Part shown: positions 2-60,800 of the stretch, one piece after another | How the letters are laid out: each line of letters begins with the position of its first letter | Numbering within the stretch: position 1 is the stretch's first letter | NCBI GenBank assembly: GCA_008125075.1 | Contig: VLTH01000002.1 | Location: 423,105-487,104, forward strand | Direction: 5' to 3' | Source: Acetivibrio alkalicellulosi | GTDB taxonomy: Bacteria; Bacillota; Clostridia; Acetivibrionales; Acetivibrionaceae | Length of the DNA stretch: 64,000 bases | Program-made: the position numbers and the translations under genes | Notes under the pieces: model-generated | What the model was told of the DNA's origin: nothing | Databases searched by the model: none | What the model saw: the letters and a program-made list of their open reading frames with translations, nothing else

Positions 2-3000
2 ATGGAAAAAATCATAAACCCTGATGATCCATCAAAAAGCAGTATTACAAGAATGGTTTATGATAATGCAGGAAGATTAGTACAGATTATACCTCCAAAT
101 CTATATAATCCTGAGCTAGATAATCTTTATACCAGAAGATATGCTGATAATTCAGTAGGTACAAGGTATAGATATAATTCAAAAGGTCAGGTTGAATCTG
201 TTACAGATCCAGAAAACAATGTAACCAAATATACCTATGATATTTATGGAAATGTTGAAACAGAAGAGAAGCCAAATGGAGCAGTATATAAATATGACTA
301 TGATGCTATTAATAGAATGGTAAAATTATCATTTAAAGATAGAGCATCTTTAAGCTCATATACTGTTCTTGAAGAATACAAATATACATCTGACAACAAT
401 CCTGTGAAAGAAACAATTAGGCATTTAAGTAGTAATGAAACGGCTAAAATATTAGATACTTTTGATTATGCACAAAGACATATAAGGAGAGATAATCCTT
501 CGGATATATACAACGCAGCTTCATTTACCTCTACACAATACTATGGAAATGGACAAATAAAAGAACACACTAATGAAAATGGCTATACTACATATTTTAA
601 CTATGATAAATACGATGCTGCCTTAAAAATGAAATATGATGAAAAGTGGACTCCAGTTGAGCTTGTAGGATCTACTGTTCAATATAATTATACAAGAGTA
701 TATTACGACTATGCAGGAAGAATTGTATCTGAATGGACAAGTGATGAACTTGTAGAAAAAGATGGAGTTCCTCAAAACTATATCAAAAAAACAATTGGAT
801 ACTATAGTGATGGTAAAATAAAACATGTTGAGCATGGCGATGGAAGAAGAATTGATTATTTATATGATTATGACAGAAATCTTACATCTGAAAGAATACG
901 TAAAGATTCAAATGAGGAAATAAGAGCAGAATATGAAAACAATCATTTAGGAAAACCTTATGAAAAGAGAGAATATATAAGAAGAGGAGATATTACAGGT
1001 AATTTATTTACCGATAATGGAAACCAAGTAATCAAAACAATTTATAAATACGACTTAAATGGAAATATTGAAAATGTTATAAGAGAAGGCGTTTATCCTA
1101 ATTTAGGTTCAACCCATACAATAACATATACTTATGACAAAGCAGGAAGAAGCACTGGAAGTATAGAGCTTGTGCTTGATTATGATGGAACACTAAAAGA
1201 GGTACAAACTCACTCAGTTTTAAATTGGGAAGGGAACCCAACAAAAACAGAAGTTAAAGTAAATGATATAACAACAAGGACTACAAGCTATAATTACAAC
1301 CCAAGAGGATTTTTAACAAGTGTTACTTCACCTGTGGGTACTACTCTTTATGATTATGACAGAGGAGGAAGGCTTATTGCAGAAGTGTCTCCTGAAAACT
1401 ATAGGGCAAATTCAACTATAAGTAATATGGATAGAAATATCTATACTTATGATAAGCTAGACAGATTAATAACAAAAGCTTTTAGAGGAAGACAGGGGAG
1501 TTTTAATCAAAACGGAATATGGACTCAATCATCAAGTCAAACAACAGTTGTTCAAAAGGCATATAGATATGACAAAGCAGGTAATGTAATAAAAGAACTT
1601 GATGCATTAGGTTTTTCAACTGCATCTGGATCAAGTGATGCCCAGAAAATAAATAATGGATATGGAATAGAGTACGCATACAACCCAATAAATAAAGTAA
1701 CTGCTATTTTAGATGCCCAGTCAAAAGAACAATACAGACTTACCCTTTCTAATGCTCCAAAGAGGTTTAAGTATGATGCATTAGGAAGAAAAGTTGAAGA
1801 AATTGTAATGATAGAAGAAGCAAATGGCATAGAATACAGCCTACATAGTAGTAGCAAAAAATTTGAATATGACAGTGCTGGAAATATAAAAGAAGTACAG
1901 GTAAAAAGAAATAATGGAGCTTATACTACAATTGCTTCTGCTACATATGACTACTTAGGTAATGCTCTTACAAAAACAGACGGTAACAATAATACCACTA
2001 CATATACATACAATGCTTTTGGAAAATTAAGAAGTGTAACTACACCAAGTGACGGAACAATAAATTCAAACACTATAAACTATCAGTACGATGTTATGGG
2101 TAACTTAAGCTATAAGCAGGACAAGAAAGGATCACCTATTGTTATAAATGATGCTAACACATATTTTACATATGATAATCATGGAAGGCTACTAACTTCA
2201 AAAGAAGAAAGTACTACAGGAAGTGATTCAATAGGAGTATCCTTTAAATATGATGTGTATGGCAATTTGCGATTTGAAACAGATGCAAATGGCTATGTAA
2301 CAGAATACAGATATGATGATGTTGACAGGCTTATATATAAAGGAATTGAAGTGACAAATATAAATAATGAAAACACAATTCATTCTGTCAGCTTTGACTA
2401 CGATAAAAATGGTAATAAATTATATGAAATGGATCACTTAGGCAATAAGTGGGAGTTTGTTTATGACAGTTTAAATAGACTTCGTGAAAAGAAAGATCCA
2501 TATAACCAGAGTATACAAAAGCTAAACTATAACATAAACAATGCTCAAACAGAATCATTTGATGGACTAAATAATATGACAATTTATAATTATGACAAAA
2601 ACAACAGACTTATTTCAACTATTGATCCAGAGAAAAAAGAAAAGAGCACTACTTATGATATAGCAGGAAATGTCAAGACAGTATTTGATGGTAAAAATAC
2701 TACCTATTATGGTTATGACTACCGTGGAAGACTAAAGTCAGTTTCGGCCATTGTAGAAGGTCAACTGCTTACAACCTCTTATGAATATGACAATAACGAC
2801 AACCTTATAGAGCAGACAAATGCCAAAAACCACACAACAACATATGAGTATAACTGTGCAAACAAGCTTATTAGAATAATTGACAATGGTGGACGTACAG
2901 GTACACATGGTAACTATACATATGATAACACTAAAGTTGAATACTACAGATACAATGCTGATGGCACATTAAATGATAAGGTTGATAGAAATGGTGAAAG

Positions 3001-5404
3001 AACCCGTTATAGATATGATGTACATGGAAGGCTAGAGGAAGAATCAGTAGGAAAAATAACTATATCATACACTTATGACGACAATGGAAATATGCTAACT
3101 GTAACTGACAGCACAGGAACTACTGTAAGAACTTATGATGAACTTTCAAGAGTCACATCAAAAACTGTACCTTATATAGGTAAAATAACATATTTGTATG
3201 ATATAATAGTGGAAGATGGACTTTTAGCTGAGACTTTAACTGATCCTAAGGGGAATATTACAACAAAGGTATTTGATAAGGCAGGAAGACTTAAAACAGT
3301 TAAAGATGGGTACATTAATTCAACTGTTTCAACAGAGTACACATATTACACTAATGGTAGAAGAAAAAGTGTTGTATATCCAGGTGGATTAAGTGCAGAA
3401 TACACCTATTATGACAATGGTATGTTAAAAACCCTTACAAATAAAAGGGCTAACGGTGTTATAATGGATGAGTATTCATATACATATGATGCTGCTGGCA
3501 ATCAGGATTCAAAGACAGAGCTTATAAATGGAGTAGAAAAAGGAACAACTTCATATACATATGATGAATTAAACAGACTTAAAACAGTAACAGAGCCTAA
3601 CCTTAGAAAAACAACCTACACTTATGACAGGGCTGGCAACAGGGAAACTGAAACAATTGAAAGTGGAAGTGATACTACTGTAAATACTTATGCTTACAAT
3701 GATCAAGACAGGTTAAATTCTGTAACAACAAGGCTAAATGGAAGCGTAACAGAAACAACAGGATTCTCATATGACGATAACGGAAATCAGCTTACAATCA
3801 GAAGAAATAATGAGCTAATAACGACAAATGAGTATAATGAAAAAAATCAATTAGTAAGGACTACAACTAATGGAACTACCGTTGTAAACACTTATAACGG
3901 TGAAGGATTAAGGGTTGCAAAAGAAGTAAACGGTTCTTTGACAAGGTATATGTATGAGTATTTGAAAGTTATACTTGAGGTAGATGGTAGTGGTAAACAG
4001 GTAGGTAGAAATCTATACGGAATAAATCTTCTCATGAGGGATGTAGATGGTGAAAGCTACTACTACATGTATAACGGTAATGCTGATGTAACAGCACTTA
4101 TTAATAGTGTAACATCACAAATAGATGCTACCTACTATTATGATGCATTTGGTAATATATTAGAATCGACAGGAAATGTAAATAACAGTATTACATATAA
4201 GGGCTATCAGTGGGATGAAGAAACAGGATTGTATTACCTAAATGCTAGAATGTATGACCCAAAGATTGCAAGGTTCTTGCAGGAGGATACATATAGGGGT
4301 AATGTAAGGGATCCACTTAGTTTAAATTTATATGCGTATTGTGCTAACAATCCAATAATCTATTATGATCCGACTGGACACAGTTATGAGTACTACTTAA
4401 GAAATAAAGAAATTTACTTAAGAGATGAAGTTGAAGATAGAGATGGTGGAAAAGTTATATGGAACAACATACATAAAGTTGCTACATTTAGTTTAAATGA
4501 TATAACAATGCACTATAAAGTTGAAAATGGAAAAGCATACGAATATGATCTCCAAAGTGGCGAGAAAGGGTCAAAAATAGGATATATTAACAATGGAAGA
4601 ATAACCGTTACAATGGGATACTTTGAAAATACATTTATAAAAAGATCTGATTCTATGTCTATTCAGGGGACGGTAAACGATAATAAAAATGTACTTTATA
4701 CTACAAGGGAAGAGGCTGCAAAATATATATTAGCTCATCCAGAAAGATTATTTTCAAGTTTTAAAGTATATATTGATAATGTCATAGAGAGTTTACCCCA
4801 AGAAATAGTTTACGTCCATCATAATTATACGTATGTATATATATTAGATGAGCATAGACAACCAGCACTTTTTGGTGTAAGATTACCCCTTCCATCAATA
4901 CATGGTGAGAGTTATTATAGCTATCAATTAGCTTATACTAATGAACCCCAAATTAATGAAGGTATATTTTTGGGAGCAGGATTGTTTAAAGGTGTGGCTA
5001 ATTCAAATCAGGGAACGCCTAAGACTGGAAAGTTAGTTGGGTCAACCAGTGGGCTAAAATCACATGAGGTAAAAATGGTAAATGATTTAGTTAAAAAAGG
5101 AAACACTGTGGAAGTTGTCCCACGCTCCAATATTCAAGGAGTTAAAACGTATGATTTAAAAGTAAATGGTGTTGCGACAGAGCTAAAAACACTTACCAAT
5201 CCCAATACAGGTACAGGAGCAAAGAGAATTTATGAAGGATTCCAACAAGGAGCAGATACAGTAATGATAGATGGTAGACAGGCTGGATTAACATCCCAAC
5301 AAGCAAAAGAAATGTTGAGTAGGGCTGCAGGTAAATACACAAACAAGCAAATACCTGGGAATGTACAGATTTGGACAAATGATGGAATAATTACTTATCC
5401 TTAA
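2..5404 (+). CDS. RHS/YD-repeat polymorphic toxin, 5' end outside window, nuclease-like C-terminal tip
   Basis: The frame is open at the left edge, so the Met at position 2 is probably internal and the export region is missing. YD repeats (patterns such as YDNAGRL and YDxxGN) fill about residues 1-1370. The conserved RHS core follows, with YLNARMYDPKIARFLQED from about residue 1412 and DPTGH near 1456-1460. The tail after this differs completely from the other RHS copies downstream, as expected of a toxin tip. Its last ~110 residues contain TYDLKVNGVATELKT (Asp1718, Glu1727, Lys1729), which resembles the D-ExK active site of PD-(D/E)XK-type nucleases and the tRNase tips of some CdiA proteins. 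RHS proteins are known to encapsulate and deliver their C-terminal toxin to competitors. Assigning this tip as a nuclease is inference from the motif. This is the only RHS copy here long enough to be the expressed form. Confidence 0.9.
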   Translation: MEKIINPDDPSKSSITRMVYDNAGRLVQIIPPNLYNPELDNLYTRRYADNSVGTRYRYNSKGQVESVTDPENNVTKYTYDIYGNVETEEKPNGAVYKYDYDAINRMVKLSFKDRASLSSYTVLEEYKYTSDNNPVKETIRHLSSNETAKILDTFDYAQRHIRRDNPSDIYNAASFTSTQYYGNGQIKEHTNENGYTTYFNYDKYDAALKMKYDEKWTPVELVGSTVQYNYTRVYYDYAGRIVSEWTSDELVEKDGVPQNYIKKTIGYYSDGKIKHVEHGDGRRIDYLYDYDRNLTSERIRKDSNEEIRAEYENNHLGKPYEKREYIRRGDITGNLFTDNGNQVIKTIYKYDLNGNIENVIREGVYPNLGSTHTITYTYDKAGRSTGSIELVLDYDGTLKEVQTHSVLNWEGNPTKTEVKVNDITTRTTSYNYNPRGFLTSVTSPVGTTLYDYDRGGRLIAEVSPENYRANSTISNMDRNIYTYDKLDRLITKAFRGRQGSFNQNGIWTQSSSQTTVVQKAYRYDKAGNVIKELDALGFSTASGSSDAQKINNGYGIEYAYNPINKVTAILDAQSKEQYRLTLSNAPKRFKYDALGRKVEEIVMIEEANGIEYSLHSSSKKFEYDSAGNIKEVQVKRNNGAYTTIASATYDYLGNALTKTDGNNNTTTYTYNAFGKLRSVTTPSDGTINSNTINYQYDVMGNLSYKQDKKGSPIVINDANTYFTYDNHGRLLTSKEESTTGSDSIGVSFKYDVYGNLRFETDANGYVTEYRYDDVDRLIYKGIEVTNINNENTIHSVSFDYDKNGNKLYEMDHLGNKWEFVYDSLNRLREKKDPYNQSIQKLNYNINNAQTESFDGLNNMTIYNYDKNNRLISTIDPEKKEKSTTYDIAGNVKTVFDGKNTTYYGYDYRGRLKSVSAIVEGQLLTTSYEYDNNDNLIEQTNAKNHTTTYEYNCANKLIRIIDNGGRTGTHGNYTYDNTKVEYYRYNADGTLNDKVDRNGERTRYRYDVHGRLEEESVGKITISYTYDDNGNMLTVTDSTGTTVRTYDELSRVTSKTVPYIGKITYLYDIIVEDGLLAETLTDPKGNITTKVFDKAGRLKTVKDGYINSTVSTEYTYYTNGRRKSVVYPGGLSAEYTYYDNGMLKTLTNKRANGVIMDEYSYTYDAAGNQDSKTELINGVEKGTTSYTYDELNRLKTVTEPNLRKTTYTYDRAGNRETETIESGSDTTVNTYAYNDQDRLNSVTTRLNGSVTETTGFSYDDNGNQLTIRRNNELITTNEYNEKNQLVRTTTNGTTVVNTYNGEGLRVAKEVNGSLTRYMYEYLKVILEVDGSGKQVGRNLYGINLLMRDVDGESYYYMYNGNADVTALINSVTSQIDATYYYDAFGNILESTGNVNNSITYKGYQWDEETGLYYLNARMYDPKIARFLQEDTYRGNVRDPLSLNLYAYCANNPIIYYDPTGHSYEYYLRNKEIYLRDEVEDRDGGKVIWNNIHKVATFSLNDITMHYKVENGKAYEYDLQSGEKGSKIGYINNGRITVTMGYFENTFIKRSDSMSIQGTVNDNKNVLYTTREEAAKYILAHPERLFSSFKVYIDNVIESLPQEIVYVHHNYTYVYILDEHRQPALFGVRLPLPSIHGESYYSYQLAYTNEPQINEGIFLGAGLFKGVANSNQGTPKTGKLVGSTSGLKSHEVKMVNDLVKKGNTVEVVPRSNIQGVKTYDLKVNGVATELKTLTNPNTGTGAKRIYEGFQQGADTVMIDGRQAGLTSQQAKEMLSRAAGKYTNKQIPGNVQIWTNDGIITYP

Positions 5405-5425: not shown

Positions 5426-5665
5426 ATGGCACAAATGACATGTACGTGTGGAGAAGTCTTATCAAATACTCTTGCACCAAATGATATTCAATTAAGAGTG
5501 TTTACTGATAAGGAGTGGGATGATATTATCAATATTGGGCAGATTGATACATTAGATTTGCCAGACCCTAAAGTTGATGTTTGGCGATGCCCAAAATGTG
5601 AGAGGCTGTATTTCTTTGAGGATGGTAATGATAAAGCTACAAAGATTTATAGGCTTGAAGAATAG
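5426..5665 (+). CDS. small cysteine-rich protein, candidate immunity protein for the upstream RHS tip
   Basis: A 79-residue protein starting 21 bases after the RHS stop, with an AAGAGGTG ribosome binding site. It has no recognised family. CTC near the N-terminus (residues 6-8) and CPKC around residues 55-58 could together bind a zinc ion; the rest is acidic (DDIINIGQIDTLDLPDP). A small, acidic, non-secreted protein directly after an RHS tip is the usual position of the cognate immunity gene, so the role is inferred from position only. A rho-independent terminator follows at once, so RHS and this gene form a closed transcription unit. Confidence 0.6.
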   Translation: MAQMTCTCGEVLSNTLAPNDIQLRVFTDKEWDDIINIGQIDTLDLPDPKVDVWRCPKCERLYFFEDGNDKATKIYRLEE

Positions 5666-5715: not shown

Positions 5716-5827
5716 CTCTTGCATATAAGAGGTAAATATAAAAAGGTACAAAATGTACTTACAATAATAAGAGGAAGAATCAGTAGGTAGAATAACTATA
5801 TCATACACTTATGACGACAATGGAAAT

Positions 5828-8227
5828 ATGCTAACTGTAACTGATAGCACAGGAACTACTGTAAGAACTTATGATGAACTTTCAAGAGTTACATCAAAAA
5901 CTGTACCTTATATAGGTAAAATAACATATTTGTATGATATAATAGTGGAAGATGGACTTTTAGCTGAGACTTCAACTGATCCTAAGGGGAATATTACAAC
6001 AAAGGTATTTGATAAGGCAGGAAGACTTAAAACAGTTAAAGATGGGGACATTAATTCAACTGTTTCAACAGAGTATACATATTACCCTAATGGTAGAAGG
6101 AAAAGTGTTGTATATCCAGGTGGACTAAGTGCAGAATACACCTATTATGACAATGGTATGTTAAAGACCCTTACAAATAAAAGGGCTAACGGTGTTATAA
6201 TGGATGAGTATTCATATACATATGATGATGCTAGCAATCAGGATTCAAAGACAGAGATTATAAATGGAGTAGAAAAGGGAACAACTTCATATACATATGA
6301 TGAATTAAACAGACTTAAAACAGTAACAGAACCTAACCTTAGAAAAACAACCTACACTTATGACAGGGCTGGCAATAGGGAAACTGAAACAATTGAAAGT
6401 GGAAGTGATACTACTGTAAATACTTATGCTTACAATGATCAAGATAGGTTAAATTCTGTAACAACAAGGCTAAATGGAAGCGTAACAGAAACAACAGGAT
6501 TCTCATATGACGATAAAGGAAATAAGCTTACAATTAGAAGAAATAATGAGCTAATAACAACAAATGAGTACAATGAAAAAAATCAATTAGTAAGGACTAC
6601 AACTAATGGAACTACCGTTGTAAACACTTATAACGGTGAAGGATTAAGGGTTGCAAAAGAAGTAAACGGTTCTTTGACAAGGTATATGTATGAGTATTTA
6701 AAAGTTATACTTGAGGTAGATGGAGAAGGTAAACAGGTAGGTAGAAATCTATATGGAATAAATCTTCTTATGAGGGATGTAGATGGTGAAAGCTACTACT
6801 ACATGTATAACGGTAATGCTGATGTAACAGCACTTATTAATAGTATAACATCTCAAATAGATGCTACCTACTATTATGATGCATTTGGTAATATATTAGA
6901 GTCAACAGGAAATGTAAATAACAGTATTACATATAAGGGCTATCAGTGGGATGAAGAAACTGGGCTGTATTATCTAAATGCCAGAATGTATGACCCAAAG
7001 ATTGCAAGGTTCTTGCAGGAAGATACATATAGGGGAAATATAAGGGATCCACTTAGTTTGAATTTGTATGCGTATGTTCATAATAATCCATTAATATACT
7101 TTGATCCATTAGGTCATAGCCCAGTAAATATACAGGTTGGAGATGTGCAAGTAAGAAATGCTGCTGTAAGTGGAGGAAGGACAACAGGTAATCTTGAGGA
7201 CATTGTAAAGGGACTAGGAGGAAGAATAAAGACTATAAAAGAAGGTGGAAGGTTTGGAATTGGTGGTGAAGTGGTAGCATATGATGTCTATTTAAAAAAT
7301 CCTGAAACAGGTATAATGGAGAGAAAAGCTACTTATGATATAAGATCAATGAGAGATAGCGACGGAAACAGTTTTTCAATTATAAATGGAAGTGTACAGG
7401 GACAGGTTAGAGAACTAGCAACACTAGCAGGTGTAGATGATACAATTAGTTGGTGGCATGACAGAAATAAAAATCTTAATGTATTGGTTAGACCAGAGAT
7501 GAAGTATGCACCAGTGAAAGTTGTTCGAGAGGGAAACAATATAAACGTTAAAGCTCATATAAATATAGTTGGATTAGCTTCTCAGGGTTTTGCATGGGAA
7601 GAAGATAATGAGAGACTTCGCGAAAGGAACAATAATTATAATTTTAAAAGATTTTATGACCTTGTATCTGAAGGGTTTAAACTTTGGGAAGGAAATTACA
7701 CAATAAATGGAGAAAATGTGGATGTTAATGTAGATGTTATTACTAATAATAATTCTTCTAATCAAAAATATATAAAAGTTGAAGTTAGAAACCCAAGTAA
7801 CTATGCATTAATATCTGATTCTTATGATAGAAACGGACAAAGTCACGTTAAAGTTAATCCATATAAAGGTTGGTCTATTCAAAATAATGTAAATTACGTA
7901 AGGCTTTATACAGGATACTTAAGGAATGGAGAAATAAATTTTGATGATTGGGGTGCATTTAAAGCAACATCAGCCCATGAATTTGGTCATGTTTTAGGCA
8001 TTAGTGATGCGTATGATGTTGGCAGTGAGCGTTTATTAGGAGGAAGAAGATCCGCTCCAAATGTTATTATTGATGAGGATATGGATATAAGATATCAAAT
8101 ACCTCAAGATGCTATTATGAGAGGTGGATTTAGAGCAAGCAACTTTGTAACAGATTATGATATAAAACTGATGTGGGATGCATTCAGAACTAATACTTTT
8201 CAACATTATCCACAAGTTGATAAATAA
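5828..8227 (+). CDS. orphan RHS-core fragment with metalloprotease-like C-terminal tip
   Basis: Residues 1-430 repeat the RHS core of the first gene with few changes (YLNARMYDP at about residue 383). Similarity starts abruptly at about position 5770, where a Leu codon of the full gene is replaced by an in-frame TAA; the next ATG is 5828. There is no signal peptide and no good ribosome binding site. After DPLGH the tail is new. It contains HEFGHVLGISD (His717, Glu718, His721, Gly724, Asp727), a metzincin-type HExxHxxGxxD zinc site, and a possible Met-turn at AIMRGG (about Met764). It reads as a silent tip cassette that would be expressed only after recombination into a full-length RHS gene, although weak translation from 5828 cannot be excluded. 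Protease activity is inferred from the motif. Confidence 0.8.
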   Translation: MLTVTDSTGTTVRTYDELSRVTSKTVPYIGKITYLYDIIVEDGLLAETSTDPKGNITTKVFDKAGRLKTVKDGDINSTVSTEYTYYPNGRRKSVVYPGGLSAEYTYYDNGMLKTLTNKRANGVIMDEYSYTYDDASNQDSKTEIINGVEKGTTSYTYDELNRLKTVTEPNLRKTTYTYDRAGNRETETIESGSDTTVNTYAYNDQDRLNSVTTRLNGSVTETTGFSYDDKGNKLTIRRNNELITTNEYNEKNQLVRTTTNGTTVVNTYNGEGLRVAKEVNGSLTRYMYEYLKVILEVDGEGKQVGRNLYGINLLMRDVDGESYYYMYNGNADVTALINSITSQIDATYYYDAFGNILESTGNVNNSITYKGYQWDEETGLYYLNARMYDPKIARFLQEDTYRGNIRDPLSLNLYAYVHNNPLIYFDPLGHSPVNIQVGDVQVRNAAVSGGRTTGNLEDIVKGLGGRIKTIKEGGRFGIGGEVVAYDVYLKNPETGIMERKATYDIRSMRDSDGNSFSIINGSVQGQVRELATLAGVDDTISWWHDRNKNLNVLVRPEMKYAPVKVVREGNNINVKAHINIVGLASQGFAWEEDNERLRERNNNYNFKRFYDLVSEGFKLWEGNYTINGENVDVNVDVITNNNSSNQKYIKVEVRNPSNYALISDSYDRNGQSHVKVNPYKGWSIQNNVNYVRLYTGYLRNGEINFDDWGAFKATSAHEFGHVLGISDAYDVGSERLLGGRRSAPNVIIDEDMDIRYQIPQDAIMRGGFRASNFVTDYDIKLMWDAFRTNTFQHYPQVDK

Positions 8228-8250
8228 TAATTATGACAAGAGGGATGGAA

Positions 8251-9321
8251 ATGAAAAAATATATATTATTTGTTGCTACTTTTATGATATTGTTATCGTC
8301 TTGTATAGATAGTACAATTGATGATTTTTCAAGTGATCAAGAGTTATACAGAGTACAAAGACGTGGAAAATGGGGTTTTATAAATAAAGATGGAGAAATA
8401 ATAATAAGGCCTAAGTATAAATGGGCATTAGATTTTAGTGATGGTCTTGCACCAGTTCAAATAGGTAATAAAATGGGATATATCAATGAAAAAGGTGATA
8501 TTGTAATTAAACCAATATTTGACTTTGCGGATGTTTTTAATGATGGATTGGCGATAATAAGAACAGGAAAACACATTAGAGAAAGAAGATATGGTTTTAT
8601 AGATACAGAAGGAAATATTGTTATAGAACAACAATTCCAAAGTCTTTATCCCTTTTCAGATGAGTTGGCAATGGGACTTAAGGATGACAAATGGTTATAT
8701 ATTGACAAAAGCGGCAATGTTGTATTAGAGGAGCAATTTGATAGTTCTTCAAATTTCAGTGAGGGTCTTGCATCGTTTAAGTCAAACGGCAAATATGGAT
8801 ACATAAATAAAAAAGGAGAAGTGGTTATAGATGCAAAATTTGAAGGTGCTTTTCCTTTTTCAGACGGTCTTGCATTAGTTAATGTAATGGCAGCAGACTA
8901 TCCAGAAAATATTCCAGAAGGAATGAACTTAGTTCATTTGAGTGGTTATATTGATATAACAGGAAGGTTTGTAATTGAACCTCAGTATGTAGGTGGATCG
9001 GATTTTAAAAATGGCATTGCTATTGTATCCAAGGGAGCAGATAAAATGGCGATTGATAAAAATGGGAATGTATTATTCAAATTGCCACCTTGGGGTTTTC
9101 GTTATTTTAGAGAAGGTTTTGCAGCTGTATCTATAAATATTGGAAATCCAATAATTGAAAATTTTAAATGGGGTTTCATTGACACAAATGGTGAATTATT
9201 GATTGAACATAAGTTTGATGAAGTTGGAGATTTCTACAAAGGCATTGCACGAGTAAGAATGGGTGAAAAATGGGGTTATATAAATACATCTGGAGATTAC
9301 ATCTGGAAACCTACTAAATGA
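8251..9321 (+). CDS. WG-repeat lipoprotein, candidate immunity partner of the metalloprotease tip
   Basis: Start chosen at 8251 (MKKYILFVATFMILLSSC), which has an AGAGG site upstream and gives a proper lipoprotein signal with a lipobox ending at Cys18; in-frame ATGs at 8233 and 8245 would only extend it. The mature part is about eight WG (KWG) repeats of the form WGFINxxGxxxIxPxFxxAxxFxxGLA. WG-repeat proteins are common in clostridia with no single known function. It begins 23 bases after the RHS fragment with the metalloprotease tip, and the next RHS fragment starts at its stop codon, so it travels with that cassette. A surface-anchored immunity protein would suit a toxin acting outside the membrane, but that is inference. 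Confidence 0.75.
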   Translation: MKKYILFVATFMILLSSCIDSTIDDFSSDQELYRVQRRGKWGFINKDGEIIIRPKYKWALDFSDGLAPVQIGNKMGYINEKGDIVIKPIFDFADVFNDGLAIIRTGKHIRERRYGFIDTEGNIVIEQQFQSLYPFSDELAMGLKDDKWLYIDKSGNVVLEEQFDSSSNFSEGLASFKSNGKYGYINKKGEVVIDAKFEGAFPFSDGLALVNVMAADYPENIPEGMNLVHLSGYIDITGRFVIEPQYVGGSDFKNGIAIVSKGADKMAIDKNGNVLFKLPPWGFRYFREGFAAVSINIGNPIIENFKWGFIDTNGELLIEHKFDEVGDFYKGIARVRMGEKWGYINTSGDYIWKPTK

Positions 9322-9463
9322 TAAGGCAGGAAGACTTAAAACAGTTAAAGATGGGGACCTTAATTCAACTGTTTCAACAGAGTATACATATTACCCTAAT
9401 GGTAGAAGAAAAAGTGTTGTATATCCAGGTGGACTAAGTGCAGAATACTATTATGACAATGGT

Positions 9464-11368
9464 ATGTTAAAGACTCTTACAAATAAAAGGGCTAACGGTG
9501 TTATAATGGATGAGTATTCATATACATATGATGCTGCTGGCAATCAGGATTCAAAGACAGAGATTATAAATGGAGTAGAAAAGGGGACAACTTCATATAC
9601 ATATGACGAATTAAACAGACTTAAAACAGTAACAGAACCTAACCTTAGAAAAACAACCTACACTTATGACAGGGCTGGCAACAGGGAAACTGAAACAATT
9701 GAAAGTGGAAGTGATACTACTGTAAATACTTATGCTTACAATGATCAAGACAGGTTAAATTCTGTAACAACAAGGCTAAATGGAAGCGTAACAGAAACAA
9801 CAGGATTCTCATATGACGATAACGGAAATCAGCTTACAATTAGAAGAAATAATAAGATAATAACAACAAATGAATACAATGAAAAAAATCAATTAGTAAG
9901 GACTACAACTAATGGAACTACCGTTGTAAACACTTATAACGGTGAAGGATTAAGGGTTGCAAAAGAAGTAAACGGTTCTTTGACAAGGTATATATATGAG
10001 TATTTGAAAGTTATACTTGAGGTAGATGGTAGTGGTAAACAGGTAGGTAGAAATCTATATGGAATAAATCTTCTTATGAGGGATGTAGATGGTGAAAGCT
10101 ACTACTACATGTATAACGGTAATGCTGATGTAACAGCACTAATTAATAGTGTAACATCACAAATAGATGCTACCTACTATTATGATGCATTTGGTAATAT
10201 ATTAGAGTCAACAGGAAATGTAAATAACAGTATTACATATGCAGGATATCAGTGGGATGAAGAAACAGGACTCTATTACCTAAATGCTAGAATGTATGAT
10301 CCTAAGATTGCAAGGTTTTTGCAGGAAGATACATACAGGGGTGATCTAAGGGATCCACTTAGTTTGAATCTGTATGCGTATAGTCATAACAATCCAATAA
10401 AATATTATGACCCAACAGGATACTGGATCGAATTACGTGAGAACCTTGAAGCACTTCTAAAAGTACAACTTAACTATAAGAGTGTTTATGACAATCCTTA
10501 TATGCCTTGGAAGAGTAAACAAGATTATTTAGATATATTAAGTGAAGAAATAGGCTTAATCAAAGAAAACATTTACAACACTGCACAAGTTTATGAAAAC
10601 TGGCCTTTAGGAGTAATTGACGGGTATTATGCACGGGATATTGTAGATTCAATATTTGCCAATGGCAATACTAGGGCGTTTACATTAATTGATGATACAA
10701 AATTAGCATTGGAAATTTTCCAACAACAGTCAGATGCTCATTTTAGACAGAAACTCAAACTAGACGGTATTCAAGTAGGAGTAACAGCTGGTGCTATAGT
10801 AGGGATTGTAAAGGCTGGACCTATAGCATCTGGGGCAAGTGCTGTAAAATCGGGAACAGGTGTAGTATCAGCAAAAGTAAATAATGCAATGCTACAAACT
10901 TACATTTCTTTTACTACTGCTGCGGGTACAGTAGCTGAAAAAGGAACAGGTGTCATCAAAAAAAGTTTTAATTGGGTAACGGGTAAGGGAACGGGCAAAC
11001 TTGAAAAAGCAATGCTCAAATCAAATTCTGCTAATCAATGGGGAACTCTATCTGATGGAACTAACCAAGGAGTTAAACATTTTAAAAACTATTGGGATGA
11101 ATACCCTGAACGAATTCCTTCATTAGCTAAGCGTTTAGGAGTTGCCCCTAATGAATTTGAAAACACCGTTAAAGGATTTGAGAATTTCACCAACGCTGCT
11201 CAAAAAGTAATAACAAATCATTCTTCAATGAAAACAGTTGGTGATAAAACTATGTATTTCATTGAAGGTGCAGAGAAAGCTAAAAAGGGTGTTGCAGTAA
11301 TTGTTCAAGATGGAAAGATTCAAACAATGATGCCAACCACTCTAAAAGATTTCTTAAATTTACAATAA
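9464..11368 (+). CDS. orphan RHS-core fragment with unrecognised toxin-like tip
   Basis: RHS-core similarity begins exactly at the TGA of the preceding gene (position 9319) and is open in frame; the first ATG is 9464. It is nearly identical to the other two copies through YLNARMYDP (about residue 273) and DPTGY (about 320), with a 3-base in-frame deletion near 9448. The 310-residue tip has a Gly/Ala-rich hydrophobic stretch (about residues 442-470, GVTAGAIVGIVKAG) as in many pre-toxin linkers, then a ~100-residue C-terminal domain with AKRLGVAPNEFENTVKGF and KTVGDKTMYFIEG. I do not recognise this domain; small RNase folds often have this size. No signal peptide or clear ribosome binding site is visible, so this is probably another silent cassette. 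Confidence 0.8.
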   Translation: MLKTLTNKRANGVIMDEYSYTYDAAGNQDSKTEIINGVEKGTTSYTYDELNRLKTVTEPNLRKTTYTYDRAGNRETETIESGSDTTVNTYAYNDQDRLNSVTTRLNGSVTETTGFSYDDNGNQLTIRRNNKIITTNEYNEKNQLVRTTTNGTTVVNTYNGEGLRVAKEVNGSLTRYIYEYLKVILEVDGSGKQVGRNLYGINLLMRDVDGESYYYMYNGNADVTALINSVTSQIDATYYYDAFGNILESTGNVNNSITYAGYQWDEETGLYYLNARMYDPKIARFLQEDTYRGDLRDPLSLNLYAYSHNNPIKYYDPTGYWIELRENLEALLKVQLNYKSVYDNPYMPWKSKQDYLDILSEEIGLIKENIYNTAQVYENWPLGVIDGYYARDIVDSIFANGNTRAFTLIDDTKLALEIFQQQSDAHFRQKLKLDGIQVGVTAGAIVGIVKAGPIASGASAVKSGTGVVSAKVNNAMLQTYISFTTAAGTVAEKGTGVIKKSFNWVTGKGTGKLEKAMLKSNSANQWGTLSDGTNQGVKHFKNYWDEYPERIPSLAKRLGVAPNEFENTVKGFENFTNAAQKVITNHSSMKTVGDKTMYFIEGAEKAKKGVAVIVQDGKIQTMMPTTLKDFLNLQ

Positions 11369-11386
11369 GAATATATGGAGGTAATT

Positions 11387-11809
11387 ATGCCTAAAGCAAG
11401 GATTAGAGAAGTAAAATATGATGGATATGAAAGACTCTATTTATTGGACTTGATAGAATCAAATAACAAAGTATGTGCTTATGGTCTAGAATATGATAAT
11501 TATGTTAAGAGCGGTTCAGAAGTTATTAAAGAAATAGTTGAAAAAGAATGCAATTTCTCAATAGAGTGGGTTAACAAAATTAGGGTAGCTAGTTTTGAGG
11601 TTGATGAAATTATACAAGATAAACCAGGTTCATCACATACTGTTTGCAATGTTACAATTTCTAAAGTAATTGATTCAGACTCTTTTGAATGGTTTAGCAA
11701 GTATTTAGGAAAAGTTACCACGGAAATTGAAAATGATGTTGATTTTTTAGAAGTAGGTATAAAAGTATCATTTACAGGAAATCTACGTGTGTACTTCGAA
11801 AATTTGTAG
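11387..11809 (+). CDS. hypothetical protein, candidate immunity protein
   Basis: Start 11387 (MPKARIREVKYDG) is preceded by GGAGG five bases upstream; the earlier in-frame ATG at 11375 lies before that site and is unlikely. The product is 140 residues, soluble and acidic, with no recognised domain or signal peptide. It follows the third RHS tip by 18 bases on the same strand, the usual place for an immunity gene. Function is inferred from position. Confidence 0.6.
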   Translation: MPKARIREVKYDGYERLYLLDLIESNNKVCAYGLEYDNYVKSGSEVIKEIVEKECNFSIEWVNKIRVASFEVDEIIQDKPGSSHTVCNVTISKVIDSDSFEWFSKYLGKVTTEIENDVDFLEVGIKVSFTGNLRVYFENL

Positions 11810-17799: not shown

Positions 17800-20700
17800 T
17801 TAGTCATCTATTGGAATAAAACCGGCTGTTAGGTTAACATCAACTGATGGATGCTTATACATTTCTTTACCATAGATAAAACCAGTATATGTTGAATTAA
17901 TGCCATTTAGAAAAATTTCACCATAAGGAGCTATCAGTAATCCAGAAAAAATCGTATTATCAGCATCATTTCTGATACTACCTCCACTAGAAATAAAACA
18001 AACATCTTCAAGGACAAATTCACTACCAAATGGCTGGTGTGAACCTCCAATAGTAATATTACCATCTGCTATAACAAAAACACTATTTGGAGAAGTGTTG
18101 TCTACATGTCTAATGGTATTAGACATTTTAATACTCTGAGTTTTAATATACAAACTGCCCATAAAATACATATCAGATTCAATTATAAAACTATCAGTAC
18201 CTAGAATTGAAAAAGTGTTTGAACCTGAATCATATTTGACATATACAGTCTTCGCATCGTTTAAATAAATTATATGATCAGCAGTAGGGAAATCACTAGG
18301 TCTAAATATATTTTGTAGATCGTCAAATCTTTTATTGAGAGTTATTGCATTGTCAAGGATGTTTTCAATTAGATCAATAATAATTTGAAACTCAAACTGG
18401 TTTAATTCAATTGAATCAATTTCATGAATCTGATTAAGGTTTTCAACAGGAAAAACATCAATACTATATGTTTTTTTACTAAAACCATCTTGGGCTGTTA
18501 CTTCAATTGTTGCAGTACCAGGAATGGATATTGGTTGAGTTATATTAATTGTTGAATTTAAGTTGTACGGTATTGCATTAATAAAGGGTACAGAGTTTGT
18601 ACAAATATTTAATGAATATTTATCAAGATCTTTTGTAAAATCTTCAACGATTTCGTTATTTACAATTAGATAACGTAACTCTGTGTCATTAACATCACGT
18701 ACCTTTACAGGAATATTTGTAAGTCTATTGGGATTTACACTAAACATAAACATTGATCCATCTTCTTTAAGAGCTATTGAATCATATAGCTCAACAAAAC
18801 CTTCTCCAATTGCTTTTACAGGAATATTACTATTTGAGTATGTACCTATTCCTAATTGTCCGATGTCGTTTCTACCCCAAGCCCAAATTGTACCATCTTC
18901 TTTAAGCGCAAGTACTCTTTCAGAAGTTGCTGAAATTGACTTAACATTATCAAGATTTTCTACTTGAATAGGCACTGTAGTAGATTCATAAGTACCATTT
19001 CCTAATTGACCAAAATCATTTCTACCCCAAGTCCAAACAGTACCATCTTCCTTTAATAAAACAATAAAACTATTGGTATAATATGACTGTATGCTAGAAA
19101 TTGTAATTATCTTTGTTGGTGTAGTATTGCTTTGAGAACCCCAAACCCAAAAAGAACCTTCTTTGTCTAATGCATAAGTTTGATAACCGAGTGCTTTTAT
19201 GCTTGCAATTCCTTCTAGAGAAACTTGTATTGGAGTATTACTATTTTCAGTAGTGCCATTTCCTAGCTGACCAGAATTATTTCTACCCCAAGTCCATACA
19301 GTACCATCCTTCTTTAATGCAATAGAATGAAAAACTCCTGTAGCAATATATGAAATATCAGTTAGGGTTGTCACCCTTGTTGGAGAGTTAGTACTATTTC
19401 GAACAGAACTTCCTAATTGACCATAATTATTATCCCCCCAAGCCCAAACAGTACCATCTTCTTTTAGTGCAAGACAAAAGTTATTTCCTGAAGAGATATC
19501 AACAACACCTGATAATATTTCATTTCGTGATGATTGATTTGAAGTCCATGTCCATAAAGTACCATCTTCTTTTAAGCCAACAGATCTCATGCTTGATAGC
19601 ATAGGAGAATAACTAACTACTTTTTTAAACTCAGATTGTGTTGGTGATATACTAATTGCAACACTGTTATTAAAATATTCTACATTACCTAATTGTCCAC
19701 TAGAGTTACTGCCCCAAGTCCATATTTCACCACTAGTAGTTAATGCTGCTGCATTAGTATTACTACTAGATAATGAAGATATATTGTTTATAGTTGACAG
19801 TTTGTAAGGTGTATTATGTGAAATATCTAAAGTAGTATTTTTACCCCAAACCCAAATACAACCATCTTTACTTAAAGCCATTGAGTGGTTATTAAATGAA
19901 GATATTGAAGAAATATTATTTAATGCGGTTACTTGAATTGGTGTAGAACTGCTTGTGCTAGTTCCATCGCCAAGTTGATTTTCATTATTATAACCCCAAG
20001 CCCAAACGGTTCCATCTTCCTTTAACACAAGAGAATGTGAGCTACCTGCACTTACAGAAATAGCATTTGATATACCTGATACTTCTGTAGGATGATCAGT
20101 ATGTCCAGTTATAAATGAACCAAATATCCAAACTGATCCATCATTTTTTAATGCTAGAGAATGTCGATCAGCAGATGATACAAGTTTAACATCTGAAATG
20201 CCTGTTAGTTTTGTAGGTATATTTATACTATCAATAGATCCGATTCCTAATTTTCCACTAGAATTGTGACCCCAAGCCCAAACATCACCATCCTCATTAA
20301 TAGCAAAAGATTGATAATTTGCAGCCTCTATGTATTTTATATTGTATAATCCATCAACTTTAACTGGATTAATACTATGTTCATTATGTCCTTGTCCTAA
20401 TTGGCCAGATTCATTCCAGCCCCAGGCCCAAACAGTTCCATCCTCTTTTAAAGCTAAAGCATGTAGGTTTCCTACAGATATAGATTTTATATTTATTAAT
20501 TCAGGTACTTTTGTTAAATTATAATTTGTATCACCAACTATATTTTTACCCCAAGTCCAAACGCTGCCATCATCTTTTAATGCAACCATGAAAGCATTTC
20601 CAACTGCTACGTGAGTAAAACCTTCAGGTATTATGTCTGGGCTTGGCGGAGGCTCAATTTTTGCAGCTGGAAATATATCAATAATCTCTAGGATATATCT

Positions 20701-20982
20701 TCTTAAAAGAGCATAATCAGTACTATTTATCTGCCCATCCCCATTTACATCGGCAGCTTTTAATCCATTAGGAGAAGGAAAATCAGAAATAATTTCAAGT
20801 AAGTACCTTCTAGCTAATGTAATATCTGTGCTGTTAACTACCCCGTCACCATTTAAATCTCCATAGATAAATTCTTCTGAAACGTTACTTGCAAGAGAAA
20901 AATAACTCACACTTAATAAATTTGTTAAAACAATTGCTAAAAATAAAGATGTTGCTAAAAATTTTCTTATTTGTTGCTTCAT
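17800..20982 (-). CDS. secreted dockerin protein with 14 RCC1-like repeats
   Basis: 1060 residues. AGGAGG precedes the ATG. A signal peptide (about residues 1-32) is followed directly by a type I dockerin (about 40-105; loops DLNGDGVVNSTD and DVNGDGQINSTD, helices RRYLLEI and RRYILEI). Fourteen repeats of the type GTVWAWGxNxxGQLGxGT fill about 120-760, enough for two seven-bladed RCC1 propellers. A cadherin-like/beta-sandwich region (about 765-840, ending AQDGFSKKTYSIDVF) comes next, then a C-terminal module (FIIESDMYF ... FSGLLIAPYGEIFLNG) also found in the neighbouring gene at 22725-25103. The dockerin predicts attachment to a cellulosomal scaffoldin; the repeats suggest binding rather than catalysis. 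No catalytic motif is visible. Confidence 0.9.
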   Translation of the reverse strand: MKQQIRKFLATSLFLAIVLTNLLSVSYFSLASNVSEEFIYGDLNGDGVVNSTDITLARRYLLEIISDFPSPNGLKAADVNGDGQINSTDYALLRRYILEIIDIFPAAKIEPPPSPDIIPEGFTHVAVGNAFMVALKDDGSVWTWGKNIVGDTNYNLTKVPELINIKSISVGNLHALALKEDGTVWAWGWNESGQLGQGHNEHSINPVKVDGLYNIKYIEAANYQSFAINEDGDVWAWGHNSSGKLGIGSIDSINIPTKLTGISDVKLVSSADRHSLALKNDGSVWIFGSFITGHTDHPTEVSGISNAISVSAGSSHSLVLKEDGTVWAWGYNNENQLGDGTSTSSSTPIQVTALNNISSISSFNNHSMALSKDGCIWVWGKNTTLDISHNTPYKLSTINNISSLSSSNTNAAALTTSGEIWTWGSNSSGQLGNVEYFNNSVAISISPTQSEFKKVVSYSPMLSSMRSVGLKEDGTLWTWTSNQSSRNEILSGVVDISSGNNFCLALKEDGTVWAWGDNNYGQLGSSVRNSTNSPTRVTTLTDISYIATGVFHSIALKKDGTVWTWGRNNSGQLGNGTTENSNTPIQVSLEGIASIKALGYQTYALDKEGSFWVWGSQSNTTPTKIITISSIQSYYTNSFIVLLKEDGTVWTWGRNDFGQLGNGTYESTTVPIQVENLDNVKSISATSERVLALKEDGTIWAWGRNDIGQLGIGTYSNSNIPVKAIGEGFVELYDSIALKEDGSMFMFSVNPNRLTNIPVKVRDVNDTELRYLIVNNEIVEDFTKDLDKYSLNICTNSVPFINAIPYNLNSTINITQPISIPGTATIEVTAQDGFSKKTYSIDVFPVENLNQIHEIDSIELNQFEFQIIIDLIENILDNAITLNKRFDDLQNIFRPSDFPTADHIIYLNDAKTVYVKYDSGSNTFSILGTDSFIIESDMYFMGSLYIKTQSIKMSNTIRHVDNTSPNSVFVIADGNITIGGSHQPFGSEFVLEDVCFISSGGSIRNDADNTIFSGLLIAPYGEIFLNGINSTYTGFIYGKEMYKHPSVDVNLTAGFIPIDD

Positions 20983-41540: not shown

Positions 41541-42923
<1,383 letters not shown>

Positions 42924-57812: not shown

Positions 57813-60800
57813 TTATTGTCTATCTGCTGGAAATTCATCTATAATTCCCAAAACAAATCTTTTAAGTAAGGTATAGTCTGTAGAGTCTATAGACCCATTT
57901 GCATCTAGGTCAGCAGCTTTTAGCTTTTCTCCTTCAAGTGTATAACCTTCCAGCTCTAGTAGATGTCTTTTTAATAGAACACAATCAATTGAATTCACTT
58001 TGCCATCCCCATTGAGATCTCCATATAAGACAGGCGGTAATGTAGGATAAATCAGTTCAAACATTGGTCTACCTTCAGAAGTCTTTGTTAATGCCCATAG
58101 CTTGCCATCTACAAATACCAAATTCAAAAGTGTTCCCTTTGAAGTCAGGGTATCTATTACATTTAAACCTTCATAGCTATAAACATTGATTGTATTATCT
58201 CCCACTGCAGTATAAAACTTATCATTTTCAATGTCAAAGGCTATGTCTTTAAAGGGTACATTTAGATTAAAAAAGAATCTCATATCTTCAGTTCTGTCTT
58301 CATCACAAGTAAAAATATTACCTGACCCATTAAAAAGAAATTTTCCATCAGGAGATATTTTAAAGTTTGTGTAAAGAGAATAATTTCCATGGTATGGAGA
58401 ACGATAAGACTCGATAAATTTTCCATTATCTATATTAAAAGCTATAAAATTTCTTGGTGAAGAATCAGTAGTAATTGTGTATATCCTGTCTAATGTTGGA
58501 TGTATTTTAGTATAACACCTTTGTCTGATACTATAAAAATCACCAAGTTGTTTTGATAATCTTGAATAACTGTTAAAATTAGTCCATTGTCCTGAGCCCG
58601 ATGAGACATATATATACCCATCTCTACCAGCAACAATATCAAAAGGGTCAATGTCTATAAAAAACTGTTCTTTTACTTCCATAGTATCTGCATCAATTAT
58701 TGCTATATAACCACTTTGGTCTTCTTCCCATCTGTATGAACTATGTGGGCCTGTAAGTATTGTAACAAACAACTCACCATTATGATAATCCATTCTTTCA
58801 ACAGATCCATTAATAAATGCTTCATTAACTATTCTTTGTGATTCAACGTCTATTGAGTAAATCTTTGAATTTGATACATCCAACGCATAAATTAATGGTT
58901 TTGAAGGATGGGATATGATGGAGGTTATGGTTGCATTAAAAGGCAACATAATACCAGGATCAGGAGTAGGTGAAGGTGCAGAAGGTATTAATGTATTTAA
59001 TTCTTCAGAAGTAAAAATTTCTAAGCAGTTTGATGATAAGGAAAATAATTTATTATTCTTAAAAAATAAAGCATCTGGTTTTTGATCAAGATCTATACTG
59101 ACAAGTAGTGATAATGTGCTGTAATCGTATATTTTTAAGGTGTTAGAAGATAATGTAAACATGGTTTTGTTTTCTGCGTCAAAGCAAGCCTCAGTAAAAC
59201 TAGTTGAGAGTTTTGAAACATACCTTATGTCATATAAACTGTTAGAACTTGAAGTAAATATATTACCTGAAGAATTAAAAATCAGTAAACCGTCAGGAGA
59301 AATTTTATTTATATTATGCATTGAATAATCACCATGATAAGGTGAAGAATATTGACGTAATATTTTTCCATCGGCATATTCAAAGGCATGTATATCACTT
59401 GGAGAAACTCCTCTTCTTGTATAATAAAATACACTTCTGGTAGGATGTTTTTCTAACTTGCCAGAATATGATGAAGATACTCTAGATATCTCTTGTTTGG
59501 AAGTCCTTAAAATTGATATAATATTCCTACTACTTAAAACATATATAAATCCATCATGACCTACACCAATATCGGCAAAAGTTGAACCAGTTATTATCTG
59601 ATCATTAAGTATAAGTGTAGTTTCATCATATATGTAAATTATTCCGTTTTGCCCACAACCCACATATATTTCACCATTATATATGTCTAAACTATTTGGA
59701 GAATAACTTACAGAAGTTTCAGTAATTTCGCCTGTTGAATAATTCAAAGAGACAAGCTTGTCATTTGTACTATCGATAAAATATATAAATGAATTATCAT
59801 TATTAATTACAGCCTCACTAATATTATAACTATTAAAAGTAATTCTTTCTATTGGTAATTGTGATGTAGGAGTAGTAGTAGGAGGTGTAGGAGTAGTAGG
59901 AGGAGGTGTAGGAGGTGTAGTAGGAGGTGTAGTAGGAGGAGGTGTAGGAGGCGTAGGAGGCGTAGGAGGCGTAGTAGGAGGAAGTGTAGGTTCTGTACTT
60001 TTAACAACATTTATTTTTTCAAGAATGGTCCTATTTCCAAGAGTTGAAATAGCTATAATTTGACCATTTTTAAAATACATATCTTTTATTGTGCCCTTGG
60101 AATACATGGTGTCTATACCCATAAAAGAACTGTATTTGTAAACATAAATCATGTTTGCATTTACAGATGTATAAAATCTGTCATTTTCTAGATCAAATAC
60201 CACATCATTAAAAGGTTTATTAAGCTTAATATAGAATCTCAAATCTTCTGATTTATTATTGGATGAATTGAATATATTACCTGATGAATTAAACACATAG
60301 TGTCCGTCAGGTGATATCCTATTTCTTGTAGATATACTGTAATCACCATGATATGGTGAATCATACGCCTCTTTGAGTATACCATTATCATATTTACATA
60401 CAACAATATCTCTAGGAGATACTCCAGTATTAGAAAGTACAAATGAGTTATGTACAGGATGTGGCTCTAAATGTCCTATATGTCGAAACCACAAATTTGA
60501 TATTTCTTGTTTAGATACTCTAGAAAAACTTTTTACATAGTTAGATTCGATTCCCCTATTATTAGGTGACGTATATATAAATCCATCATTACCAATAGCT
60601 ACATCATTAAATGTATATCCCGTCATTATTCTATCAATATACTGAAGTGTATCTGCATTGTAAATTCCAATCATACCCTGAGATCCAAATCCTACATAAA
60701 CTTCGCCATTGCCAAAAGCAATAGAATTAGAGTTGTACCCAAGAGAAGTTTTAAGCATCTCACCAGACTCTATATCAACTCTGATTAGATCATTAGTGCT

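What the first reader, a model, noticed from the sequence alone, without database searches (positions are those of the whole stretch)
7110..9321. Metzincin-like RHS tip paired with a WG-repeat lipoprotein
The second tip carries HEFGHVLGISD with a possible Met-turn, suggesting a zinc protease toxin. Its partner is not a small soluble protein but a lipoprotein with about eight WG repeats that ends exactly where the next cassette begins. A lipid-anchored outer-face protein as immunity against a protease acting outside the membrane would be unusual and, as far as I know, not established for WG repeats.
Basis: inference. Interest (0 to 1): 0.7.

Follow-up and report, generated by a model that had tools for sequence, protein, structure and literature searches.

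The report
Exported beta-propeller guarding against protease toxin
In a cellulose-degrading clostridium, a toxin tip that looks like a zinc protease sits next to a gene for a fat-anchored, propeller-shaped surface protein; the same pairing turns up in distant relatives, so the propeller is probably the bacterium's shield against its own protease.

Summary
Window 7112-8227 is a displaced Rhs tip with HEFGHVLGISD and a downstream Met; H, E, H, D and M are invariant in 15 aligned rows. The next gene (ORF 8233-9321, likely start 8251) encodes a WG-repeat lipoprotein (Pfam 4e-81) whose stop codon coincides with the first bases of the next cassette. A survey supports the pairing. Of 12 tip loci with an adjacent partner gene (11 found through the tip, G388 through its WG gene), 6 partners are exported WG-repeat proteins, in six genomes of four families, against 0 of 39 partners of other Rhs tips (Fisher p 5e-5; 2e-4 without G388; rows not independent). 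All 12 partners carry an export signal or membrane helix by a simple hydropathy test (19 of 39 for other tips). The WG protein is predicted with good confidence as a beta-propeller, nine blades by my count. Best reading: a secreted metzincin-type protease toxin, neutralised outside the membrane by a lipid-anchored propeller. Location-matched, even lipid-anchored, immunity has precedents (VgrG2b/PA0261, TipC, XAC2610); I found none for WG repeats. A cyanobacterial plasmid has a WG lipoprotein in the immunity slot behind an unrelated Tlde1 tip. Function is untested.

The parts
5770..7107 (+). duplicated Rhs core of the displaced cassette
   Evidence: 96.0% DNA identity to window 3034-4371; RHS_repeat in Pfam
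5828..8227 (+). open frame of the displaced cassette (Rhs core plus tip); starts inside YD repeats, no signal peptide seen
   Evidence: no evident ribosome-binding site before the first ATG (by eye)
7112..7521 (+). shared N-terminal part of the tip, nearly identical to that of the other tip at G000:C2:1413560
   Evidence: 98.3% DNA identity of window 6518-7521 to L025, after which homology collapses
7522..8227 (+). metzincin-like catalytic domain; HEFGHVLGISD 7976-8008, Met-turn candidate 8117-8119
8251..9321 (+). WG-repeat lipoprotein, candidate immunity protein (ORF open from 8233); lipobox Cys 8302-8304
   Evidence: PF14903 4e-81; predicted beta-propeller, pLDDT 86.6
9319..10423 (+). Rhs core of the next displaced cassette, beginning at the WG stop codon
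   Evidence: 95.3% DNA identity to window 3274-4381

Best explanation
The tip is a metzincin-type zinc endopeptidase toxin of an Rhs polymorphic toxin that acts on proteins outside the cytoplasmic membrane of rival cells. The gene behind it makes its cognate immunity protein: a lipid-anchored, probably nine-bladed WG-repeat beta-propeller on the outer face of the membrane, which binds the protease and blocks its active site before it can cut the cell's own surface proteins. Toxin domain and immunity gene travel together as one exchangeable cassette. Shown here: gene order, conserved ligands, recurrence in other genomes, joint exchange of catalytic domain and partner between two loci. Predicted: export signals, lipid anchor, propeller fold. 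Inferred: protease activity, target, binding and protection.
For: (1) WG-repeat exported protein directly behind the tip, same strand, in six genomes of four families: G000 (window), G010, G388, G367, G040, G830, gaps 23, 128, 19, 79, 12 and 6 bp in that order. (2) In four of the six it is the only WG gene found at E<=0.001: G000, G388, G040 and G830; G010 and G367 have one further frame each. (3) Specificity: 270 ORFs in 48 regions around Rhs cores of G000, G010, G040, G211 and G388 gave one WG hit, the G040 metzincin partner itself. (4) Of 12 tips with a partner, 12 partners carry an N-terminal signal or TM segment, against 19 of 39 for other Rhs tips (p 0.0015). (5) Window and L025 are 98.3% identical in DNA from 6518 to 7521; beyond, the six full 40-column blocks of the catalytic part are 17-42% identical and the next gene is a WG lipoprotein in one and a 151-aa TM protein without WG match in the other: toxin domain and partner changed together. 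(6) Compartment matching is described for such pairs (PMC6899460, PMC12419801, PMC6193138).
Against: No activity, binding or protection was measured. Half of the tips (6 of 12) have a different exported partner. One of the six WG cases, G388, was first found through its WG gene and its tip was a row of the later profiles; without it the count is 5 of 11. The G830 case came from a profile that already held WG-paired tips. WG proteins at large are mostly not seen beside such tips: of 30 WG loci, with 1.5 kb or less on each side, two (window and G388) hold an HExxH protein; of 12 plasmid records opened, one shows an Rhs array in its annotation. Two further tips (G010:C282 at a contig end, G005 degraded) show no partner. 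The tip's fold could not be modelled (pLDDT 35). The window's cassette has no evident start or secretion signal of its own, so its toxin may be silent.
Confidence: 0.7

Rival explanations
1. The WG propeller protects by shielding or occupying the toxin's envelope target, or serves as a decoy substrate, rather than by plugging the active site.
For: The predicted lipid anchor places it where a target would be; WG proteins occur widely without such tips, so the family has other roles.
Against: Partner identity changes together with the catalytic domain between window and L025, which fits direct recognition of the toxin better.
Confidence: 0.14
2. The WG protein is an accessory of the toxin (export chaperone, cell-surface anchor or activator) and not an immunity protein.
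For: It is exported by prediction and next to the toxin; surface display of Rhs proteins may need helpers (recalled, not tested).
Against: It occupies the slot where the neighbouring cassettes have other small genes (5426-5665, 11375-11809); an accessory factor would be expected to go with the conserved core, not with the exchanged tip.
Confidence: 0.11
3. Chance neighbour or mobile cargo: the WG gene has nothing to do with the tip.
For: WG genes are common in this class: 63 of 391 genomes at E<=1e-20.
Against: 6 of 12 tips (5 of 11 without G388) against 0 of 39 control partners; a single WG gene found per genome in four of six; two export variants (lipobox; signal peptide plus Cu_amine_oxidN1) behind different tip lineages.
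Confidence: 0.03

Closest known systems
VgrG2b C-terminal metallopeptidase / PA0261 (Tpe-Tpi family), PMC6899460, passages read
   Same: metallopeptidase toxin acting outside the cytoplasmic membrane; immunity needs its signal peptide and is soluble, lipoprotein or TM-anchored in different species
   Different: T6SS of Gram-negatives; the passages do not describe PA0261 as a WG or propeller protein; no sequence comparison was run here
TelC / TipC (T7SS), PMC6193138, abstract and outline read
   Same: Gram-positive toxin acting in the inner wall zone, immunity anchored in the membrane with its domain outside
   Different: lipid II phosphatase toxin; TipC has a TM helix and a crescent-shaped alpha/beta domain, not a propeller
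X-Tfe(XAC2609)/X-Tfi(XAC2610) and Tse1/Tsi1, PMC10933484 and PMC3391265, passages read
   Same: exported immunity with a beta-propeller-like fold; XAC2610 has a lipobox; [quoted passage not shown] predicted for XAC2610)
   Different: peptidoglycan-cleaving toxins; Tsi1 is a partial propeller of three sheets; no WG repeats mentioned in the passages
Tox-MPTase1-5 and Imm65 in the polymorphic-toxin catalogue PMC3482391, passages read
   Same: zinc metallopeptidase tips on Rhs proteins; one lipoprotein immunity family (Imm65)
   Different: the table rows seen list no immunity partner for Tox-MPTase1-5; Imm65 goes with Tox-JAB-1; the text says beta-propellers were not yet found among immunity proteins; 'WG repeat' has no occurrence in the part held. 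Whether the window tip belongs to one of Tox-MPTase1-5 was not tested
SUKH immunity superfamily (as described in PMC3482391 passages)
   Same: one scaffold used against several unrelated tips
   Different: the WG protein is exported; only two tip types seen so far, one of them in a single record

Membership tests
Metzincin zinc peptidases | HExxHxxGxx(H/D) zinc-binding motif | tested here: met
   HEFGHVLGISD; H, E, H and D invariant in 15 rows, the Gly in at least 90%
Metzincin zinc peptidases | Met-turn downstream of the motif | tested here: inconclusive
   one invariant Met, tip residue 336; that it forms the turn is not shown
Metzincin zinc peptidases | significant profile similarity or fold | tested here: inconclusive
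   profile of 15 finds myroilysin 6e-5 and snapalysin 9e-4; window tip below Pfam cut-offs; fold model failed, pLDDT 35
Metzincin zinc peptidases | zinc-dependent proteolysis | not testable with these tools
   needs purified protein
Rhs polymorphic toxin cassette | Rhs core followed by variable tip and immunity gene, with displaced tip cassettes | tested here: met
   RHS_repeat in three ORFs of the array; core duplicated at 95-96% DNA identity
WG_beta_rep proteins (PF14903) | score over the curated Pfam cut-off | tested here: met
   267 bits against 25.6, 7 stretches
Bacterial lipoproteins | signal peptide with lipobox ending in Cys | tested here: met
   LSSC at residues 15-18, Cys invariant in three proteins; Pfam LPAM_1 below cut-off; acylation untested
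Beta-propellers | circular array of antiparallel-sheet blades | tested here: met
   on a predicted model only: pLDDT 86.6, pTM 0.74; eIF2A and eIF3b propellers fill ranks 1-14 at Z 15.2-17.7 over 309-344 residues; nine blades by my strand count
Cognate immunity protein | linked gene, location matched to toxin | tested here: met
   linkage; export by prediction; the toxin's place of action is inferred
Cognate immunity protein | binds toxin and protects | not testable with these tools
   needs bench work

The most novel reading that the evidence does not exclude
WG-repeat beta-propellers are a general immunity scaffold for the outside of the cell, an exported counterpart of cytoplasmic SUKH: the same anchored propeller is recruited against chemically unrelated envelope-acting tips (metzincin protease in Clostridia, Tlde1-type peptidoglycan enzyme in a cyanobacterium), with blades or loops tuned to each toxin. 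This would give a first role to part of a very common family.
Probability: 0.35. Interest if true: 0.75.

Novelty: new variant of a known kind. Interest (0 to 1): 0.6.

Why it matters
WG-repeat proteins are common in this class (63 of 391 genomes at E<=1e-20) and I found no assigned function for them in the papers searched; a toxin partner gives a testable one. It would add a complete beta-propeller to the immunity folds and show how Gram-positive Rhs toxins that act outside the membrane are countered. The rule seen here, that the partner of this tip is exported whatever its fold (12 of 12), would let one predict from the immunity gene in which compartment an uncharacterised tip acts.

Tried and rejected
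Chance neighbour: rejected by the control counts. 'WG is the one immunity family of this tip': rejected, 6 of 12 partners are other exported proteins. 'Lipoprotein immunity is exceptional': rejected, other tips in the same genome also have lipoprotein or TM partners, 11 of 23 in G000.

A literature search on Gram-positive Rhs and lipoprotein immunity listed 3 papers, none opened.

Rows dropped before the counts. One search listed 59 Rhs-core places in six genomes; 48 were taken as controls. The 11 left out are five cores of metzincin tips (window, L025, L030, G010:C170, G211), the G367 core (also a metzincin tip), the two other tips of the window (added back by hand as controls), one split match and two at contig ends. 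Of the 48 regions, 3 had no readable core ORF (L152, L158, L160) and 8 no plausible partner by my reading (L115, L136, L137, L138, L140, L141, L142, L153), leaving 37; with the window's two, 39. L132 and L134 have the same partner, so controls are not all independent. Of 14 tip loci in a toxin setting, G010:C282 and G005 have no partner and are outside the 12. The seven non-Rhs secreted metzincin proteins of G007:C145 and G000:C1 are outside the 12 as well; six of seven are followed by a 241-252-aa multi-TM protein. Export calls use a hydropathy threshold and a lipobox pattern in a script, not a trained predictor. G388's delivery protein is cut by the contig end and not shown to be Rhs; the Rhs link of G801 and G010:C282 was not established; G040's tip match has a stop inside and G801's too. 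Whether the six non-WG partners are related to each other is unclear: best pairwise E 0.009.

Confidence was lowered from 0.72 to 0.70 for that.
Full report
WHAT IS THERE. The window lies in a 5.3-Mb genome (G000:C2:423105-487104) with dockerin-like proteins (my reading). At its left end is an Rhs array: an Rhs frame with a CdiA_C-type tip (2-5404) and a 79-aa partner, then two displaced cassettes, each a copy of the Rhs core with a new tip and a new partner gene. The cores are 95-96% identical in DNA to the first one; homology starts at 5770 in the second cassette and at 9319 in the third. The finding is the second cassette: tip 7112-8227 and WG gene 8233-9321 (probable start 8251). The WG stop codon is 9319-9321, so the gene ends on the first bases of the next core. 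The first Rhs frame begins in the middle of YD repeats; I did not follow its upstream part.

THE TIP. HEFGHVLGISD and a downstream Met are the only clear landmarks. Searches of the own family, order and class found relatives. In 10 aligned tips His, Glu, His, Asp and Met are invariant, and still in 15 rows that include stand-alone proteins. Two of the tips lack the motif's usual Gly (G801; G830). A profile of the 15 finds myroilysin (6e-5), snapalysin (9e-4) and matrixins in the PDB; the window tip stays under the Pfam cut-offs, and over all members Matrixin is the most frequent match, 13 of 15 at E<=0.1. I take it as a divergent metzincin-like peptidase with Asp as third ligand (as in snapalysin, recalled). 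A model of the window tip alone failed (pLDDT 35).

THE PARTNER. PF14903 WG_beta_rep, 4e-81; the lipobox Cys is shared with the full-length WG proteins behind the tips of G010 and G388, 42% and 39% identical. It is the only WG gene found in the own genome. With four viral-contig homologues as alignment, AlphaFold2 gives pLDDT 86.6 and, after the signal helix, an almost all-beta chain. The best structural matches are the propellers of eIF2A and eIF3b (ranks 1-14, Z 15.2-17.7; 4nox is titled 'nine-bladed beta-propeller of eIF3b'), with designed and dipeptidyl-peptidase propellers below. Counting strand triplets in the DSSP string I get nine blades.

DOES THE PAIR RECUR? Tip searches covered 14 genomes of the family, 58 of the order, 391 of the class, 398 of the phylum and the families of G388 (22 genomes), G367 (70) and G040 (4); these sets overlap. 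A WG search of the same class sample brought G388. Fourteen tip loci in a toxin setting came out; 12 have an adjacent same-strand partner. Six partners are WG-repeat proteins, all over the Pfam cut-off: lipoproteins with 7-8 scored repeats in G000, G010 and G388, and signal-peptide proteins with a Cu_amine_oxidN1 domain and 3-4 scored repeats in G367, G040 and G830. The other six are single-TM or multi-TM proteins without a Pfam family over its cut-off (G000 twice, G008, G211, G801, G835). Eleven of the 12 were found through the tip; G388 was found through its WG gene and its tip was then a row of the profile. On the tip tree the WG-paired tips fall in three places with moderate support, so the partner type was probably exchanged or regained.

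CONTROLS. Forty-eight of the 59 Rhs-core places, in G000, G010, G040, G211 and G388, were read; 37 have a partner. A WG profile built from the three lipoproteins finds 1 hit among their 270 ORFs, the G040 metzincin partner, which lies in one of those regions, and recovers the G367, G040 and G830 partners as positives. With the two other tips of the window: WG in 6 of 12 against 0 of 39, Fisher p 5e-5; exported partner in 12 of 12 against 19 of 39, p 0.0015. Without G388: 5 of 11, p 2e-4, and 11 of 11, p 0.0016. The rows are related to each other, so the p values are a guide only. In the reverse direction the link is weak: of 30 WG loci only those of the window and G388 hold an HExxH protein within the 1.5 kb or less kept on each side.

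JOINT EXCHANGE. Another Rhs protein of the same genome (L025, 2031-aa frame with a signal-like N-terminus) is 98.3% identical in DNA to window 6518-7521, that is through the last part of the Rhs core and the first 137 residues of the tip. From there on the catalytic domain is only distantly similar and the next gene is a 151-aa TM protein instead of the WG lipoprotein. Toxin domain and partner changed together: the signature of a toxin-immunity pair.

A SECOND PHYLUM. A protein search of plasmids with the WG lipoprotein hit Oscillatoria nigro-viridis pOSC7112.02. There a large RHS/FG-GAP protein with a Tlde1_dom tip (1.3e-14) is followed with 4 bp overlap by a WG protein with a lipobox (LLSC; PF14903 1.2e-91), then by a displaced Rhs cassette with an Endonuclea_NS_2 tip and a SMI1/KNR4 gene. 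The Salmonella Tlde1a effector acts on peptidoglycan when sent to the periplasm (PMC9638812, passages). So the exported WG protein stands behind the tip expected to act in the envelope and the SUKH-type gene behind the nuclease. It is one case: of 12 plasmid records opened, the annotation of the other 11, much of it 'hypothetical protein', shows no Rhs gene in the stretch read.

MECHANISM (inferred). Rhs delivery places the tip at the surface of a neighbour; the protease cuts exposed proteins there; sister cells carry the lipid-anchored propeller at the same face and block it. The nearest studied analogue is VgrG2b and PA0261: the metallopeptidase domain is toxic to E. coli when sent to the periplasm but not in the cytoplasm, the immunity protein fails without its signal peptide, and relatives are lipoproteins or TM-anchored (PMC6899460, passages). 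Tsi1, a partial propeller, puts a loop into its enzyme's active site, and the same is predicted for the propeller-like XAC2610 (PMC3391265, PMC10933484, passages); I would expect that mode here. The window's own toxin frame has no evident start signal, so it may act only after recombination onto a complete Rhs gene, while the WG gene, with what looks like its own ribosome-binding site, could be expressed alone.

WHAT IS NEW. Exported immunity and lipid anchoring are known. The 2012 catalogue (PMC3482391, passages) names one lipoprotein immunity family (Imm65), lists no partner for Tox-MPTase1-5 and says propellers had not been found among immunity proteins; Tsi1 and XAC2610 are described elsewhere as propeller-like. 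In some searches I saw no paper that links WG repeats to immunity: one search counts 37 papers with 'WG repeat', of which 25 were listed, by title largely on other subjects; the one paper with both 'WG repeat' and 'immunity protein', PMC8855297, mentions a Pseudomonas WG lipoprotein only as a gene deregulated with RsmA (passages). Subscription journals are mostly not held.

Noticed in passing
L187 (Oscillatoria nigro-viridis pOSC7112.02, 231631-240650): Rhs/FG-GAP toxin with Tlde1 tip, WG lipoprotein, displaced Rhs cassette with nuclease tip, SMI1/KNR4 gene: a WG protein in the immunity slot of an unrelated tip in another phylum.
   Followed up: partly
L138, L140, L141, L142 (G000:C2): Four Rhs cores end in the same tail NRVPNKALKTCW with the same ORF start 440-441 bp downstream, as if one mobile intron had inserted repeatedly at the same spot behind the core ('intron' is my reading).
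   Followed up: no
L032 and L033 (G000:C1:545000-572000), L031 (G007:C145:16000-35500): Arrays of secreted non-Rhs proteins ending in the same metzincin domain, six of seven followed by a 241-252-aa multi-TM protein.
   Followed up: partly
L178, L180, L181, L182, L183: Secreted 223-244-aa metzincin relatives beside what look like genes of mobile or conjugative elements in one family, without WG partner in the stretch held.
   Followed up: no
L089, L090, L091, L092, L094, L110, L111, L112: Stand-alone relatives of the tip without evident signal peptide or dedicated partner, a possible source of the toxin domain.
   Followed up: no
L047:3-1478 and the partners in L093, L096, L179: A Cu_amine_oxidN1 domain occurs in the toxin protein of G388 before the protease and in three of the WG partners.
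   Followed up: no
window 17800-20982, 41541-42920, 57813-62090: Large secreted proteins with dockerin-like stretches, including RCC1-like repeats and a cellulase-like protein: probably a cellulosome-type clostridium (read by eye from the translations).
   Followed up: no
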